Origin: Falsiroseomonas tokyonensis
GTDB taxonomy: Bacteria; Pseudomonadota; Alphaproteobacteria; Acetobacterales; Acetobacteraceae
DNA length: 64,000 nucleotides
Direction: 5' to 3'
Assembly: GCF_019024325.1 (NCBI RefSeq)
Contig: NZ_JAFNJS010000002.1
Span: 186,118-250,117, forward strand
Shown here piece by piece: positions 6,349 to 18,360 of this stretch. The notes below the pieces were generated by a model. It ran no database searches. It worked only from the letters and a program-made list of their open reading frames with translations, and was not told where the DNA came from. The translations under genes were made by a program, and so were the position numbers. Position 1 is the stretch's first letter; each line of letters opens with the position of its first letter.

Positions 6349-7212
6349 ATGCCCATGGCGTCTGCCTTCCGGCTGCTTTTCGCAGCCGTCATCCTCTTTG
6401 GCGGTGCCTGGCCCATCACCAAGGCCGCGCTGGCGGATGCATCCCCACTCTGGTTCGGCACGGGCCGATCGGCGCTTGCGGCGGTGGGCGCCGCCATCCT
6501 GCTGGCGGCGCTCGGGCGGCTGCGCTTTCCCGTGGCGCAGGACCGAAAGGCGGTGCTTTTCCTCGGCCTGTTCCAGCTTGGCGGTTTCTTCGCGCTGACC
6601 CATCTGGCGGTGGCGCTGGTGCCGGCGGGGCGCACGGCGGTGCTGTCCAATGTCGTGACCTATTGGCTCATCCCGCTTTCGGTGCTGGTGCTGGGGGAGA
6701 AGGTCTCCACCGCGCGCTGGATCGCGGCGGGGTTGGGGCTGGCCGGGGCGGGCGTGCTGATCGGGCCCTGGTCGGTGGACTGGACGCAGCACGATGCGCT
6801 GATCGGCCATCTGATGCTGGTGCTGGCCGGGCTGCTCTGGACCATTGCCATCATCGCCTCCCGCAAATGGCCACCCCGCACGCCGATGTTCGAATTGCTG
6901 CCCTGGTGCTTCGGCATCGGCGCGCTGCTGCTGGTGCCGATCACGCTGCTGCTGGAACCGGATGGCGGGGTGGGGCTGAGTTCCTGGCCCTATCTTCTCT
7001 ACATCGGGTTGTTCGCGGCGCCGATCGGCACCTGGTGCGTGATCGAGGCCGGGCGGAAGCTGCCGGGGGCCGTGGCCTCCGTCGGCTTCCTGATGGTGCC
7101 GGCCTTCGGCGTGCTGGTCTCGACGCTCTGGCTCGGCGAGCCGCTGGGCTGGGATGTGATCGTGGGCGGGCTGCTGATCATCGCATCAGTTGTGCTGGCG
7201 GCACGCGGATGA
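6349..7212 (+). CDS. EamA/DMT-family transporter
   Basis: Inner-membrane drug/metabolite transporter of about 287 residues with ten predicted helices arranged as two EamA repeats. Repeat 1 begins FRLLFAAVILFGGAWPITKA; repeat 2 begins near LIGHLMLVLAGLLWTIAII. GRTAVLSNVVTYWLIPL and VLVLGEKVST are typical of helix 3-4 of the family. Starts at ATG 6349 or 6355 (MPMAS); the long upstream open frame is non-coding. The stop TGA 7210-7212 lies in the first copy of a short direct repeat that leads into the hydrolase gene. The substrate is not predictable. Confidence 0.85.
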   Translation: MPMASAFRLLFAAVILFGGAWPITKAALADASPLWFGTGRSALAAVGAAILLAALGRLRFPVAQDRKAVLFLGLFQLGGFFALTHLAVALVPAGRTAVLSNVVTYWLIPLSVLVLGEKVSTARWIAAGLGLAGAGVLIGPWSVDWTQHDALIGHLMLVLAGLLWTIAIIASRKWPPRTPMFELLPWCFGIGALLLVPITLLLEPDGGVGLSSWPYLLYIGLFAAPIGTWCVIEAGRKLPGAVASVGFLMVPAFGVLVSTLWLGEPLGWDVIVGGLLIIASVVLAARG

Positions 7213-7238
7213 AACGCTTCTTGGCGGCACGCGGATGA
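7196..7238 (+). repeat. 17-bp direct repeat at an EamA/hydrolase gene junction
   Basis: TGGCGGCACGCGGATGA occurs at 7196-7212 and again at 7222-7238, starts 26 bases apart. The first copy carries the stop of the transporter; the second carries the start codon of the hydrolase. Between them an ATG at 7209 opens a nine-codon reading frame (MKRFLAARG) that ends at 7238, overlapping both genes. Confidence 0.8.
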
Positions 7239-7999
7239 GGCTTGCCGTCACCGCGATGGGGCAGGGGTCTGCCGTCGTGCTGTTGCACGGGCTGCTCGGC
7301 GCCGGGCAGAATTTCGGCGCGGTGCAGAAGCAGTTGGCGGCCGATGGCTTCCGCGTGCTGGCGCTGGACCTGCGCAACCACGGCGCCTCCCCCCATGCGC
7401 CCGGCATGGACTATGCCGCGATGGCCGCCGATGTGGCGGAGACGCTGCAGGCGGAGGGCGCCTGGCCCGCCGCCGTGATCGGCCATTCCATGGGCGGCAA
7501 GGTCGCCATGGCGCTGGCGCTCGCGCGGCCGGAGGGGGTGGCGCGGCTGATGGTGGCGGATATCGCCCCCGTCACCTATCCGACGCCGCTCTTCACCGCC
7601 TATGTCGCCGCCATGCGCGCCATGGAACTGCGCCCTGGCCTGACGCGGCGGGAGGCCGATGCGGCGCTGGCCCCGGCCGTGCCCGCCGCGCCGCTGCGCG
7701 CCTTCCTGCTGCAGAACCTGGATTTCGCCCAGACCCCGCCCGCCTGGCGAATCGGGCTGGAGGAGATTGCCGCGGGCATGCCGCAGATCGGCGGCTGGCC
7801 GGATCTGCCGGGGCGCTATGAGGGAAGGGTGCTGGTGCTGGCCGGCGACAAGTCCGACTACATCCGCCCCGAGCATGCGCCGCTGTTCCGGCGCCTTTTC
7901 CCGGCGGCCAGCCATGCCAGCATCCCCGCCGGCCATTGGCTGCATGCGGAGAATCCGCAGGCCTTCCTGGCCGCGGCGCGGGACTTCCTGGCCGGTTAG
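7235..7999 (+). CDS. Alpha/beta-fold hydrolase (YbfF-like esterase)
   Basis: About 254 residues. The alpha/beta hydrolase core shows the oxyanion segment VVLLHGLLGAGQNFG near 15-29, DLRNHGASPH near 47-56, the nucleophile elbow GHSMGGKVAM (Ser near 86), and the C-terminal AGHWLHAENPQAFL carrying the catalytic His. The DLRNHG and GHSMGGK motifs are typical of the YbfF/abhydrolase-11 esterases. The start ATG 7235 lies in the second copy of the local direct repeat, 23 bases after the transporter stop, so cotranscription is likely. Cytosolic; it probably acts on short or acyl-CoA-like esters (family knowledge, not shown here). Confidence 0.87.
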   Translation: MRLAVTAMGQGSAVVLLHGLLGAGQNFGAVQKQLAADGFRVLALDLRNHGASPHAPGMDYAAMAADVAETLQAEGAWPAAVIGHSMGGKVAMALALARPEGVARLMVADIAPVTYPTPLFTAYVAAMRAMELRPGLTRREADAALAPAVPAAPLRAFLLQNLDFAQTPPAWRIGLEEIAAGMPQIGGWPDLPGRYEGRVLVLAGDKSDYIRPEHAPLFRRLFPAASHASIPAGHWLHAENPQAFLAAARDFLAG

Positions 8000-8000
8000 C

Positions 8001-8029
8001 TGTCCTGCGCCCCCACGGGGCGCGGGACA
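8001..8029. terminator. Hairpin between convergent genes
   Basis: The arms 8001-8013 and 8017-8029 form a 13-bp stem (one T-G wobble) around a three-base CAC loop. It starts two bases after the hydrolase stop and ends nine bases before the stop of the convergent peptide gene, so it could terminate both directions. There is no T run. Confidence 0.6.
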
Positions 8030-8037
8030 GCGCCATA

Positions 8038-8226
8038 CTACGACCCGCCGCGGTTTCCGGAGCGCGCCTCGGGCACCACCTCGTCATCGGGCGGATCCTG
8101 GTCCGAGGGATCACCGCCGGGCGGGGTCCAGTCGCCGCTGTATTCGAAGTTCAGCGCAACGACGCCACCGGTCACCTGGTCCAGCGCCGCATCGTCCAGG
8201 GGGATCGGCTTCTTGGTCTCCGTCAT
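8038..8226 (-). CDS. Double-glycine-leader acidic peptide 1
   Basis: A 62-residue protein with a strong ribosome site (AAGGA about nine bases before ATG 8226). Residues 1-21 form a leader ending LDDAALDQVTGG, the layout of double-glycine leaders cleaved by C39-peptidase ABC exporters, with L/D/L/V at spaced positions. The predicted core of 41 residues is acidic and rich in Pro, Gly and Asp, has no Cys or Lys, and contains NFEYSGDWTPPGGD. It is therefore neither a classical cationic bacteriocin nor a lanthipeptide. A related gene lies upstream on the same strand at 8382-8576. No exporter or modifying enzyme is in the window. Function unknown; leader processing is inferred from the motif. Confidence 0.72.
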   Translation of the reverse strand: MTETKKPIPLDDAALDQVTGGVVALNFEYSGDWTPPGGDPSDQDPPDDEVVPEARSGNRGGS

Positions 8227-8273
8227 GGCTCACGTCCTTCGGTCATGGAACTCGAAAACGTCTTGCGCGCCTG

Positions 8274-8372
8274 GAGCTGTTTCACCGAAAGCGAAGACGG
8301 CGAAACAGCTCGAGCTCATTGTCTTGACGCGTTTTCCGAGTCGCCTTGCGAAGCCGCAAGGCTTGAAAACGC
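8274..8372 (-). repeat. 99-nt two-hairpin dispersed repeat, copy 1
   Basis: Hairpin A: arms 8274-8287 and 8298-8311 (14 bp, one mismatch, 10-base loop). Hairpin B: outer arms 8329-8336 and 8365-8372, inner arms 8343-8350 and 8355-8362 with an AAGC loop. It aligns without gaps to 17631-17729 (89 of 99 bases by hand count), and several differences are paired changes that keep the stems. It sits 9 bases after the stop of peptide gene 2 and 47 bases before peptide gene 1. Confidence 0.85.
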
Positions 8373-8381
8373 GCTAGCGCG

Positions 8382-8576
8382 TCAGGACCAGCCGTGGCGC
8401 GGCGCGATCTCGGTGTGTTCCTCGTCGCTGCCCTGGTCATTGGTCGGGGTGCCGTAGTCGAAGCCCACCACGCCCTGGTCCGGGTCCTGGCCCGTCTGGT
8501 TGGGCTGGCCCGCGCCACCGACGACCGTCTCCGGCTCCGCATCCGTGATCGGCTGGGGCTGGCTGTTCAGCTTCAT
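8382..8576 (-). CDS. Double-glycine-leader acidic peptide 2
   Basis: A 64-residue protein preceded by a strong GGGGGAGA ribosome site six to seven bases before ATG 8576. The leader of about 21 residues ends ITDAEPETVVGG; the core of 43 residues is acidic, Gly/Asp/Gln/Thr-rich, lacks Cys and Lys, and has GFDYGTPTNDQG. Leader layout, length and an F-(D/E)-Y motif in the core resemble the neighbouring peptide at 8038-8226, so the two are probably distant paralogues or partners. The stop is followed after nine bases by the structured repeat. Export and cleavage at GG are inferred; the activity is unknown. Confidence 0.7.
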   Translation of the reverse strand: MKLNSQPQPITDAEPETVVGGAGQPNQTGQDPDQGVVGFDYGTPTNDQGSDEEHTEIAPRHGWS

Positions 8577-8653
8577 GCGCTGTCTCCCCCTGTGCAGGAG
8601 GGGATTCTGCCTATTTCAAACAGTCCGGGGAGCCTCAAGAATGCGATCAGGCC

Positions 8654-9562
8654 TCAGGTCGCCGCATAGCCCAGCCGCACCAGCGTGATCTCCGGCGGCA
8701 CGCCGATCCGCACCGGCAGGATGGAGGTGCCGAGCCCGCCAGAGACGACCAGATGCTTCCCCGCCTCCTGCACATGCCCATAGGCATAGCGATTGCCGAA
8801 GGCAGAAGGCACATAGGGCGAGAAGCCCGCCACCCGCACCTGCCCGCCATGCGTATGCCCGCAGAGCGTCAGCGCCACGCGGTCCGCCGGCACATCGGGG
8901 AAGACATCGGGCTCGTGGCAGAGCAGGATCACCGGGTCCCGGTCCTGCACGCCGCCCAGGGTGCGGCCGAGGTGGTTGGCGCCCAGGAAGCGGCCGTCAT
9001 CCGTCTCCCGGAAAGCCCAGAGGCTGCCGCTGCCCGCCACCCAGAAGCCGCGGCCGCGAAAACCCGTCTTCACCGCCGCATTGTGCAGCACGGAGATCCC
9101 GGCCTCGGCCAGCACGCGCGCCGTGCGCGGCACGCCGCGGCGGAAGCGCTGCACCTGCGGGTCGTCCCACCAGTCCCGATTGCCGAGCACGGCATGCACG
9201 CCATGTGGCGCCCGAAGCCCGCGCAGCACGGCCGCCGTCTCCGCCACCGGAATCGGGTGCCGCACCAGCGTGCCGCCGCCGACGTAATCGCCCAGCAGCA
9301 CCACGAGGTCCGGCTGCAGGGCATTGGTGGCGGCGACGATCTCGGCCACGCGGTCCAGCGGCATTTGCGGCTCGCAGGCATGGATATCGGCCAGCGCCGC
9401 GATGGTGATGGGCCGGTCCCGCGGCCAGAGCGGCGGGTTCAGCCGGTATTCCGCCACGCCGAGCCGATAGGCGGGCTCGATCCAGAAGCCGTAGAGTCCG
9501 CCCACGGCACCGGCCAGGCCCATCCCCCCCATCATGGTCAGCAGCGCGCGGCGGGTGGACAT
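8654..9562 (-). CDS. Metallophosphoesterase (YkuE/YaeI-like), exported
   Basis: A 302-residue calcineurin-like phosphoesterase. The N terminus STRRALLTMMGG followed by a hydrophobic stretch looks like a Tat signal or anchor. The metal-binding motifs are all present in order: ADIHACEP (D-x-H), LLGDYVGGG (GD), VLGNRDWW (GNxD), LLCHEPDVF (H) and LCGHTHGGQVR (GHxH). YkuE-like enzymes are exported di-metal phosphoesterases, some thought to act on lipid headgroups. It faces the photolyase-like gene divergently with 47 bases between starts. Peptide gene 2 lies 77 bases downstream on the same strand. Confidence 0.9.
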   Translation of the reverse strand: MSTRRALLTMMGGMGLAGAVGGLYGFWIEPAYRLGVAEYRLNPPLWPRDRPITIAALADIHACEPQMPLDRVAEIVAATNALQPDLVVLLGDYVGGGTLVRHPIPVAETAAVLRGLRAPHGVHAVLGNRDWWDDPQVQRFRRGVPRTARVLAEAGISVLHNAAVKTGFRGRGFWVAGSGSLWAFRETDDGRFLGANHLGRTLGGVQDRDPVILLCHEPDVFPDVPADRVALTLCGHTHGGQVRVAGFSPYVPSAFGNRYAYGHVQEAGKHLVVSGGLGTSILPVRIGVPPEITLVRLGYAAT

Positions 9563-17541: not shown

Positions 17542-17630
17542 CTCTCCCCAGGGTTGGGGCGCCCTTGGCGGCGCCCCTTGCTGTCCCCGGGTATATTGAA
17601 GCGGCCCTGCCGCTTCAACCCGCGTGGCTA

Positions 17631-17729
17631 GAGCCGTTTCACCGTAAGCGAAGACGGTGAAACGGCTCTAGCTCTTTGTTTTGTCGCATTTTCCGAGTCG
17701 CCTTGCGAAGCCGCAAGGCTTGAAAATGC
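17631..17729 (-). repeat. 99-nt two-hairpin dispersed repeat, copy 2
   Basis: Hairpin A: arms 17631-17644 and 17655-17668, a perfect 14-bp stem. Hairpin B: outer arms 17686-17693 and 17722-17729, inner arms 17700-17707 and 17712-17719 with an AAGC loop. It is the same length as copy 1 at 8274-8372, with about ten differences. It begins one base after the terC stop, in the same orientation relative to the flanking gene as copy 1. Confidence 0.85.
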
Positions 17730-17730
17730 T

Positions 17731-18360
17731 CTAATGCGCGGCCACGGCGGGCAGCGGCAGGCCGAGATGCAGCGCCTCATTCGCCGCGGCCGTGCCTTCC
17801 CACAGCAACTCCACGCCGATCCAGGCGATCAGCGCCAGGCCGACATAGGCGATGATCTTGTAGCGATCGAGCAGCTTCGCCAGCGCGCCGCCCAGCAGGC
17901 CCATCAGCAGGATGGAGACGGTGAGGCCGATGACCAGCATGGTGATGTTGTTGCGCGCCACGGCGGCCACGGCCAGCACATTGTCCAGGCTCATGGAGAC
18001 ATCGGCGATGATGATCTGGCGCAGCGCCTGCATCAGCGTCTTGTCCGGCACCGCGTGGCCGGCTTCCTGTTCCTCGGCCTGGTGGCGCAGTTCCTTCCAG
18101 AAGCCCCAGGCGATGTAGAGCAGTGCCAGCCCGCCGATGATCTCGACCCACCAGAGCCCCAGCAGCCAGGTCGCGCCGAGCGAGAAGACGATGCGGAGGA
18201 ATGCCGCGGCCAGGATGCCGAACAGCACGGCGCGGGACCGCAGGGCGGGGGGCAGGCCGGCGGCGGCCATGCCGATGACGACGGCGTTGTCACCCGACAG
18301 GATGATGTTGAGCCAGAGAATCTCCAGGAACTGCGGTCCCTGGGCAAGCAGCGAGTCCAT
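17731..18360 (-). CDS. TerC-family membrane protein (YjbE-like)
   Basis: 209 residues, seven hydrophobic helices. The two TerC signature motifs are present: ILSGDNAVVIGMAAAGLP near 21-38 and ADVSMSLDNVLAVAAVA near 119-135, whose aspartates are thought to coordinate metal. Related proteins export manganese or act in tellurite and metal homeostasis. The start ATG 18360 has GGAGGA six bases upstream. A manganese riboswitch of the yybP-ykoY type was looked for in the 135-base upstream gap but its conserved bases are not there. Confidence 0.9.
   Translation of the reverse strand: MDSLLAQGPQFLEILWLNIILSGDNAVVIGMAAAGLPPALRSRAVLFGILAAAFLRIVFSLGATWLLGLWWVEIIGGLALLYIAWGFWKELRHQAEEQEAGHAVPDKTLMQALRQIIIADVSMSLDNVLAVAAVARNNITMLVIGLTVSILLMGLLGGALAKLLDRYKIIAYVGLALIAWIGVELLWEGTAAANEALHLGLPLPAVAAH

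What the first reader, a model, noticed from the sequence alone, without database searches (positions are those of the whole stretch)
8038..8576. Tandem pair of acidic peptides with double-glycine leaders
Two short genes (62 and 64 residues), each with a strong ribosome site, encode leaders of 21 residues ending TGG and VGG, and Cys-free, Lys-free acidic cores of 41 and 43 residues. Both cores carry F-(D/E)-Y next to Gly and Thr/Pro/Asp-rich stretches. The leader style fits C39-peptidase ABC export, but the acidic cores fit neither bacteriocins nor known RiPP classes, and no modifying enzyme or exporter is nearby. This may be an undescribed two-peptide secreted system.
Basis: partly seen in the sequence, partly recalled or inferred. 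Interest (0 to 1): 0.75.

Follow-up and report, generated by a model that had tools for sequence, protein, structure and literature searches.

The report
Acidic peptides sharing a secretion tag
Two small acidic peptides of a Roseomonas-like bacterium carry the same short, cleavable export tag as a dozen other genes scattered over its genome, and one tag-cutting exporter encoded elsewhere in that genome probably secretes them.

Summary
Both frames are real. pepA (8038-8226, -) has a canonical double-glycine leader, pepB (8382-8576, -) a weaker one. A leader matrix from 31 other genes, excluding both peptides and their orthologs, ranks these leaders 1st and 2nd of 110,671 window 13-mers. Each peptide has one ortholog at the same site in a different relative; only this genome had both.

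The leader also starts at least 12 other dispersed genes here, eight with RTX-type repeats. The genome's only C39 exporter is an NHLM-type HlyD-ABC1-ABC2 operon on another contig. In five named relatives of that operon a leader-RTX gene lies beside or close to it, against 0 of 75 more distant loci; none was seen beside the operon in this genome or G004. In 299 family genomes, exporter clade and leader-RTX cargo occur in the same five.

So pepA, and less surely pepB, are probably cargos of one multi-substrate exporter, not a dedicated two-peptide system. Cleavage, secretion and function are untested. A new variant of NHLM/C39 secretion.

The parts
8038..8226 (-). pepA, 62-aa precursor; leader codons 8164-8226, core 8041-8163, stop 8038-8040
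   Evidence: ortholog in G004 53% identical at the same site; leader ranks 1st of 110,671 13-mers
8382..8576 (-). pepB, 64-aa precursor; leader codons 8514-8576, core 8385-8513, stop 8382-8384; Pro instead of Leu at -7 of the leader
   Evidence: ortholog in G008 47% identical at the same site; leader ranks 2nd
8235..8239 (-). AAGGA, ribosome-site-like, 8 nt before pepA ATG
   Evidence: read by eye
8265..8381 (-). copy of a dispersed palindromic repeat that fills most of the pepB-pepA spacer; not part of the secretion system
   Evidence: 22 matches in the own genome including itself, the longer ones within query bases 1-117; folds 4.45 sd below shuffles
7190..7999 (+). neighbour: alpha/beta-hydrolase-like ORF (name by eye); conserved neighbour, no sign that it belongs to the system
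8654..9562 (-). neighbour: metallophosphoesterase-like ORF (name by eye); used to find the site in relatives

Best explanation
pepA and pepB encode precursors of small secreted peptides. They belong to a genome-wide set of cargos that share a short N-terminal leader (consensus PLDDxALxxVxGG). The C39 domain of one NHLM-type exporter (HlyD, C39-ABC1, ABC2; contig C23 of the same genome) is proposed to dock the leader through L(-12), L(-7) and V(-4), cut after GG and pass the acidic core out of the cell by a type I route. Shown by sequence: the shared leader on dispersed genes, one C39 exporter with Cys, His and Asp positions conserved, exporter-cargo adjacency in relatives, co-occurrence across genomes. 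Inferred: cleavage, secretion, and that pepA and pepB use this exporter. Guessed, at about one chance in three: the mature flexible acidic peptides act outside the cell with the RTX-type and DxDGDG-repeat cargos as calcium-linked surface or matrix components rather than as toxins. pepB of this strain is probably a weak or decaying substrate, since Pro stands at -7.
For: Leader matrix without A/B families ranks pepA 1st and pepB 2nd of 110,671. Profile from six leaders: 15 non-seed hits at E<=0.01 in 15 genus genomes, all 15 at ORF starts with GG, 14 of 15 in the four genomes of the exporter clade. One C39 domain in the own genome, named NHLM_micro_ABC1 over cut-off with an NHLM HlyD over cut-off. 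Leader-RTX gene beside or near the exporter in 5 of 5 named loci with 73-87% ABC1 identity, 0 of 75 other kept loci with an RTX-type ORF (directly adjacent in four; in L168 about 2.1 kb from ABC1). Exporter at >=74% in G000, G004, G008, G017, G213 and leader-RTX profile in exactly these five of 299. G012 has the same two neighbours end to end, no peptide, and no exporter of this clade by score. Leader positions match those that dock in the PCAT1 structure (PMC6959990, passages).
Against: No leader gene was seen beside the exporter in the own genome or in G004. Five genomes in two genera are few, and shared descent explains part of the co-occurrence; four of the five positive genomes supplied rows of the profile used. 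The short leader profile alone missed G017 and G213. pepB breaks the -7 rule and its dN/dS is near 0.9. Most RTX labels rest on GGxGxD counts; Pfam was run on two of them. Whether RTX cargos also carry C-terminal signals was not tested. No expression or secretion data.
Confidence: 0.72

Rival explanations
1. A dedicated two-peptide secreted system: A and B act together, like two-peptide bacteriocins.
For: Neighbouring genes on one strand with similar length and composition; another pair of small leader peptides lies 4 nt apart in G001 (L074).
Against: A without B at the site in G004, B without A in G008; only one of 299 genomes had both; cores not alike; spacer holds a dispersed repeat; pepB leader weakened.
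Confidence: 0.08
2. Antibacterial class II microcins or bacteriocins.
For: Double-glycine leader and C39 exporter, the usual microcin route (PMC10231218, passages).
Against: Cores acidic and hydrophilic (pI 4.05, GRAVY -1.0 and -1.4); no small immunity-like gene noticed between the two conserved neighbours, where only pepA and pepB lie (by eye); most sister cargos are RTX-type.
Confidence: 0.08
3. RiPP precursors: the cores are modified before export, as for other NHLM-linked precursors.
For: NHLM exporters were defined by link to modified peptides (PMC2887384, passages); Thr and Ser are present in the cores.
Against: No Cys in either core; no enzyme beside the genes or in the exporter operon by eye; a genome-wide search for modifying enzymes was not made.
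Confidence: 0.07
4. The leader is not an export signal for this exporter: the RTX cargos leave by C-terminal signals through other type I systems and the shared N-terminus has another role.
For: RTX proteins usually have uncleaved C-terminal signals (PMC6959990 introduction); the own genome has many other ABC exporters.
Against: The leader is shared by non-RTX small cargos; exporter clade and leader co-occur and are neighbours; docking positions match.
Confidence: 0.04
5. Chance ORFs in GC-rich DNA.
For: 123 ORFs of 50 aa or more overlap the first 20 kb.
Against: Leader ranks 1 and 2 of 110,671; orthologs at the same site.
Confidence: 0.01

Closest known systems
NHLP/NHLM export system (TIGR03794, TIGR03796, TIGR03797; Haft et al. 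2010, PMC2887384, passages seen)
   Same: The exporter operon has the same three parts and matches two of the three models over cut-off. NHLP and Nif11-type precursors also end their leader in a bacteriocin-like motif before GG, and some lie far from the exporter genes.
   Different: Leaders here are about 15-33 aa, not about 70-83; pepA and pepB match no NHLP or Nif11 model; cargos are mainly RTX-type or acidic, most without Cys; ABC2 is below its cut-off.
EbfG1-4 and PteB of Synechococcus elongatus (PMC4997328, passages seen)
   Same: Several small GG-leader proteins with a non-antibiotic role depend on one C39 transporter.
   Different: EbfG genes form one polycistronic unit and serve biofilm formation; here genes are dispersed, cargos include large RTX-type proteins and the role is unknown.
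Microcin V system of E. coli (PMC10231218, passages seen)
   Same: Short leader cut by a C39 ABC exporter; export largely independent of cargo chemistry.
   Different: Antibacterial cargo and a single ABC protein; the paper finds export limited by cargo length, whereas precursors here reach 349 aa (L140) and perhaps 460 aa (L163).
Prochlorosins (search listing and abstracts only; dispersal recalled)
   Same: One leader type with many variable cores per genome.
   Different: Nif11-type leader and a lanthionine enzyme; no such enzyme seen here.

Membership tests
C39 double-glycine leader precursor | Hydrophobic -12, -7 and -4 with GG at -2/-1, at the N-terminus | tested here: met
   pepA: L(-12), L(-7), V(-4), GG (positions from PMC6959990). 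pepB meets -12 (Ile), -4 and GG but has Pro at -7.
C39 double-glycine leader precursor | C39 exporter in the same genome | tested here: met
   one C39 domain, G000 contig C23; Cys, His and Asp positions invariant in the clade (roles recalled)
C39 double-glycine leader precursor | Cleavage after GG and export | not testable with these tools
   needs protein chemistry
NHLM export system (the exporter) | TIGR03796 and TIGR03794 over curated cut-off | tested here: met
   898.1 against 853.3 and 258.3 against 156.2 bits
NHLM export system (the exporter) | TIGR03797 over curated cut-off | tested here: not met
   609.9 against 709.4 bits, though it is the best model for that protein; so the operon is filed as NHLM-type, not as a full equivalog
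NHLP or Nif11-type precursor | Match to the NHLP or Nif11 leader models | tested here: not met
   no NCBIfam match for pepA, only an irrelevant one for pepB at E<=10
Bacteriocin / class II microcin | Match to bacteriocin models of Pfam or NCBIfam | tested here: not met
Bacteriocin / class II microcin | Antibacterial activity and immunity gene | not tested
   activity needs the bench; no immunity-like ORF noticed by eye
Two-peptide system | The two genes kept together in relatives | tested here: not met
   A alone in G004, B alone in G008 at this site; both only in G000
RiPP | Post-translational modification of the core | not testable with these tools
   no Cys in the cores; no enzyme seen beside them

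The most novel reading that the evidence does not exclude
In Falsiroseomonas and Roseomonas an NHLM exporter, a type known for modified peptides, has become a general protein secretion system. It exports at least 14 dispersed, mostly unmodified cargos from this genome by one cleavable N-terminal leader, among them RTX-type calcium-binding proteins that elsewhere leave by uncleaved C-terminal signals, and small acidic peptides such as PepA. Together they may form a calcium-responsive extracellular layer whose small members change quickly between species.
Probability: 0.45. Interest if true: 0.78.

Novelty: new variant of a known kind. Interest (0 to 1): 0.58.

Why it matters
It would give a cargo class to NHLM exporters that have no modifying enzyme beside them; Haft et al. 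noted that the export system is more widespread than its known precursors (PMC2887384, passage). It would put RTX-type proteins behind a cleavable N-terminal leader, whereas type I substrates of Gram-negatives typically have an uncleaved C-terminal signal (PMC6959990, introduction passage). It offers a sequence rule, PLDDxALxxVxGG at the start of a gene, that names candidate secreted proteins across a little-studied group, and one exporter deletion with secretome mass spectrometry would test all of them at once.

Tried and rejected
Homology of the two cores, suggested by F-(D/E)-Y and similar tails: rejected; local scores reach shuffled scores in fractions 0.559, 0.759, 0.812 and 0.386 of 1000 shuffles.

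Counting G010 with the exporter clade because of its 911-bit TIGR03796 match: rejected; its ABC1 is 45-47% identical to the clade. A gene beside it looks LanM-like to my eye (L085 113-3073; not tested). The roughly 800-810-bit exporters of seven genus genomes are taken as a third type from score; one of them (G004) was aligned, 51-52% identical to the clade.

Leader hits opened: 22 places. Kept 10 (L145, L148, L149, L151, L152, L154, L155, L157, L163, second L074 hit). Dropped 12: L146 and L158 (no ORF found), L147 (GG lost), L153, L156, L159, two in L160, L162, L164 (no GG leader at an ORF start), and by judgement L150 and L161, which are leader-like but have doubtful ORFs. The 37 curated cargos leave out L269, L270, L271, L275, L276, L168 and the type-Y-like L082 and L084. 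In one search the cut-site finder failed for L154 and L163, so their core figures are for whole proteins and they are not among the 31 matrix leaders. The count of 24 with two or more GGxGxD includes L070, which looks Gly-rich rather than RTX.

Profile A3 was built from hits of profile A2, so its own hits are partly circular; I rest the count on the 15 non-seed hits of A2. pepB was not searched in the eight genus genomes outside the family sample.

No result: Rfam 7500-9000; promoter and terminator patterns, 0 and 0; pepA in plasmid records; exporter in viral contigs. Structure prediction was not used.

Literature searches that listed no paper describing RTX or acidic cargos of an NHLM exporter, judged from titles and abstract starts and a few passages. 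The library lacks most subscription papers. PMC6959600 passages describe NHLP-type exporters in another genus; PMC12710304, one passage, was irrelevant.

Full report
Observation. The two ORFs stand as described on the minus strand, 8038-8226 and 8382-8576, each with a purine-rich ribosome-site-like run 7-8 nt before ATG (by eye). Leaders are 21 aa; cores are 41 and 43 aa, without Cys or Lys, pI about 4.05, hydrophilic. Neither matches a Pfam family at E<=10; NCBIfam gives nothing for pepA and one irrelevant hit (E 0.13) for pepB.

Are they genes? G004 of the same genus has a 62-aa ortholog of pepA, 53% identical, between the same two neighbours, a hydrolase-like and a metallophosphoesterase-like gene. 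G008 has an ortholog of pepB, 47% identical, next to the same metallophosphoesterase. G012 has the two neighbours end to end with no room for a peptide, and in G005 no leader ORF was found at the site. For the A pair dN is 0.43 and dS 0.91 (ratio about 0.26 in the leader, 0.63 in the core); for the B pair 0.55 and 0.62. These are single pairs and rough. A is under constraint, most in the leader; B keeps its VVGGAGQ and GFDYGTP blocks but is near neutral overall.

Not a conserved pair. In 299 genomes of the family, 7 of them from the genus, the A profile matched full length in 2 and the B profile in 2; only the window's genome had both. A protein search with pepA in all 15 genus genomes found full-length matches only in G000 and G004; pepB was not searched in all 15. 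The cores are no more alike than shuffled sequence. Most of the 155-nt spacer is a palindromic repeat with 22 matches in the genome, itself included.

A dispersed leader. The search with pepA also hit the N-terminus of a 198-aa protein in the own genome with RTX repeats. A profile of six leaders run on 15 genus genomes gave 15 non-seed hits at E<=0.01; all 15 lay at ORF starts with GG, 14 of them in G000, G001, G004 and G008, one in G007. Reading these and weaker hits gave 37 curated cargos in six genomes, 13 of them in the own genome with pepA and pepB, and one more there later (L276). Of the 12 others in the own genome, eight have RTX-type repeats (L008, L067, L068, L069, L072, L154, L163, L276); the rest are L066 with DxDGDGxPD repeats, L070 Gly-rich, L071 Gln-rich and L145. 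RTX was confirmed by Pfam only for L008 and L011; elsewhere it rests on GGxGxD. Of the 37, 36 are Cys-free, 36 have pI under 5, 24 have two or more GGxGxD. The pI exception is an 81-aa ORF of G004 that looks Nif11-like to my eye (L148).

Independent check of the two leaders. A matrix from 31 leaders, without pepA, pepB or their orthologs, puts pepA first (43.5 bits) and pepB second (21.9) of 110,671 six-frame 13-mers of the window; the next has 10.6. pepB lacks the Leu at -7 that all 31 have and carries Pro there. In the PCAT1 structure, leader positions -7 and -12 form the docking knot, -10 to -4 a helix, and -4 gives specificity (PMC6959990, passages). So pepB of this strain is expected to be a poor substrate; its G008 ortholog has Leu at -7.

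The exporter. The own genome has one C39 domain at E<=0.001, in a three-gene operon on contig C23: HlyD, C39-ABC1 and a second ABC (L007 8500-9789, 6326-8503, 3369-6329). TIGR03794 and TIGR03796 are over cut-off; TIGR03797 is the best model for the third but below cut-off. ABC1 relatives in G001, G004, G008, G017 and G213 are 73-87% identical to it; two other NHLM-like types of the genus are 45% and 52%.

Linking leader and exporter. In the named genome collection, five loci match this ABC1 at 73-87% (Falsiroseomonas selenitidurans, F. algicola, Roseomonas rosea, Roseomonas sp. SXEYE001, Pseudoroseomonas deserti). All five hold a gene with short GG leader and RTX-type repeats: directly next to the operon in four, about 2.1 kb from ABC1 in the fifth (L168). 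Against this, no such gene was seen beside the exporter in the own genome (L007) or in G004 (L139), so adjacency holds in five of the seven clade members seen. In the family sample, ABC1 at 74% or more occurs in G000, G004, G008, G017 and G213; 13 further genomes match at 46% or less. A profile of leader plus RTX start hits exactly these five of 299 at E<=1e-5. The chance figure of 5e-11 overstates it, because the genomes are related and four of the five gave rows to the profile; G004 did not. The 16-column leader profile alone hit G000, G004, G008 and two marginal genomes whose hits are not leaders, and missed G017 and G213.

Mechanism. Proposed: the leader helix docks on the C39 domain, is cut after GG, and the unfolded acidic core passes through ABC1, HlyD and an outer-membrane channel that I did not look for. 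What is shown is sequence anatomy and linkage. For the role outside, the company of RTX-type and DxDGDG-repeat proteins suggests calcium-linked surface or matrix functions; EbfG1-4 of Synechococcus show that small GG-leader proteins can serve biofilm formation through one C39 transporter (PMC4997328, passages). I give this guess about one chance in three.

Novelty. C39 export, NHLM operons and precursors far from their exporter are known. In the searches listed under Tried and rejected I found no account of an NHLM-type exporter with many dispersed RTX-type and acidic cargos behind a short shared leader. I call it a new variant of a known kind.

Noticed in passing
window 8265-8381 and about 17622-17740: Copies of a dispersed palindromic repeat of roughly 105-117 nt; 22 matches in the own genome including the first.
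   Followed up: partly
L074 2801-3152 (G001): Two small leader peptides (55 and 59 aa) in tandem, 4 nt apart, another pair of the same leader type with different cores.
   Followed up: partly
L148 3086-3331 (G004): An 81-aa ORF that looks Nif11-like and ends its long leader in the same kind of motif (DAELDQVAGG), with a short basic core.
   Followed up: no
L084 2097-9879 (G004): A second NHLM-like exporter type with a 449-aa GG-leader protein upstream; leader-profile hits at a similar distance from such exporters appear in G001, G007, G010, G011, G012 and G014.
   Followed up: partly
L085 113-11882 (G010): A third NHLM-type exporter beside a 986-aa ORF that looks LanM-like by eye; its precursor peptide was not looked for.
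   Followed up: no
L147 2838-3032 (own genome, contig C23): A decayed leader copy (GG changed to RG) on a 64-aa ORF with an end like that of the RTX-type cargos, probably a pseudogene remnant.
   Followed up: no
   Followed up: no
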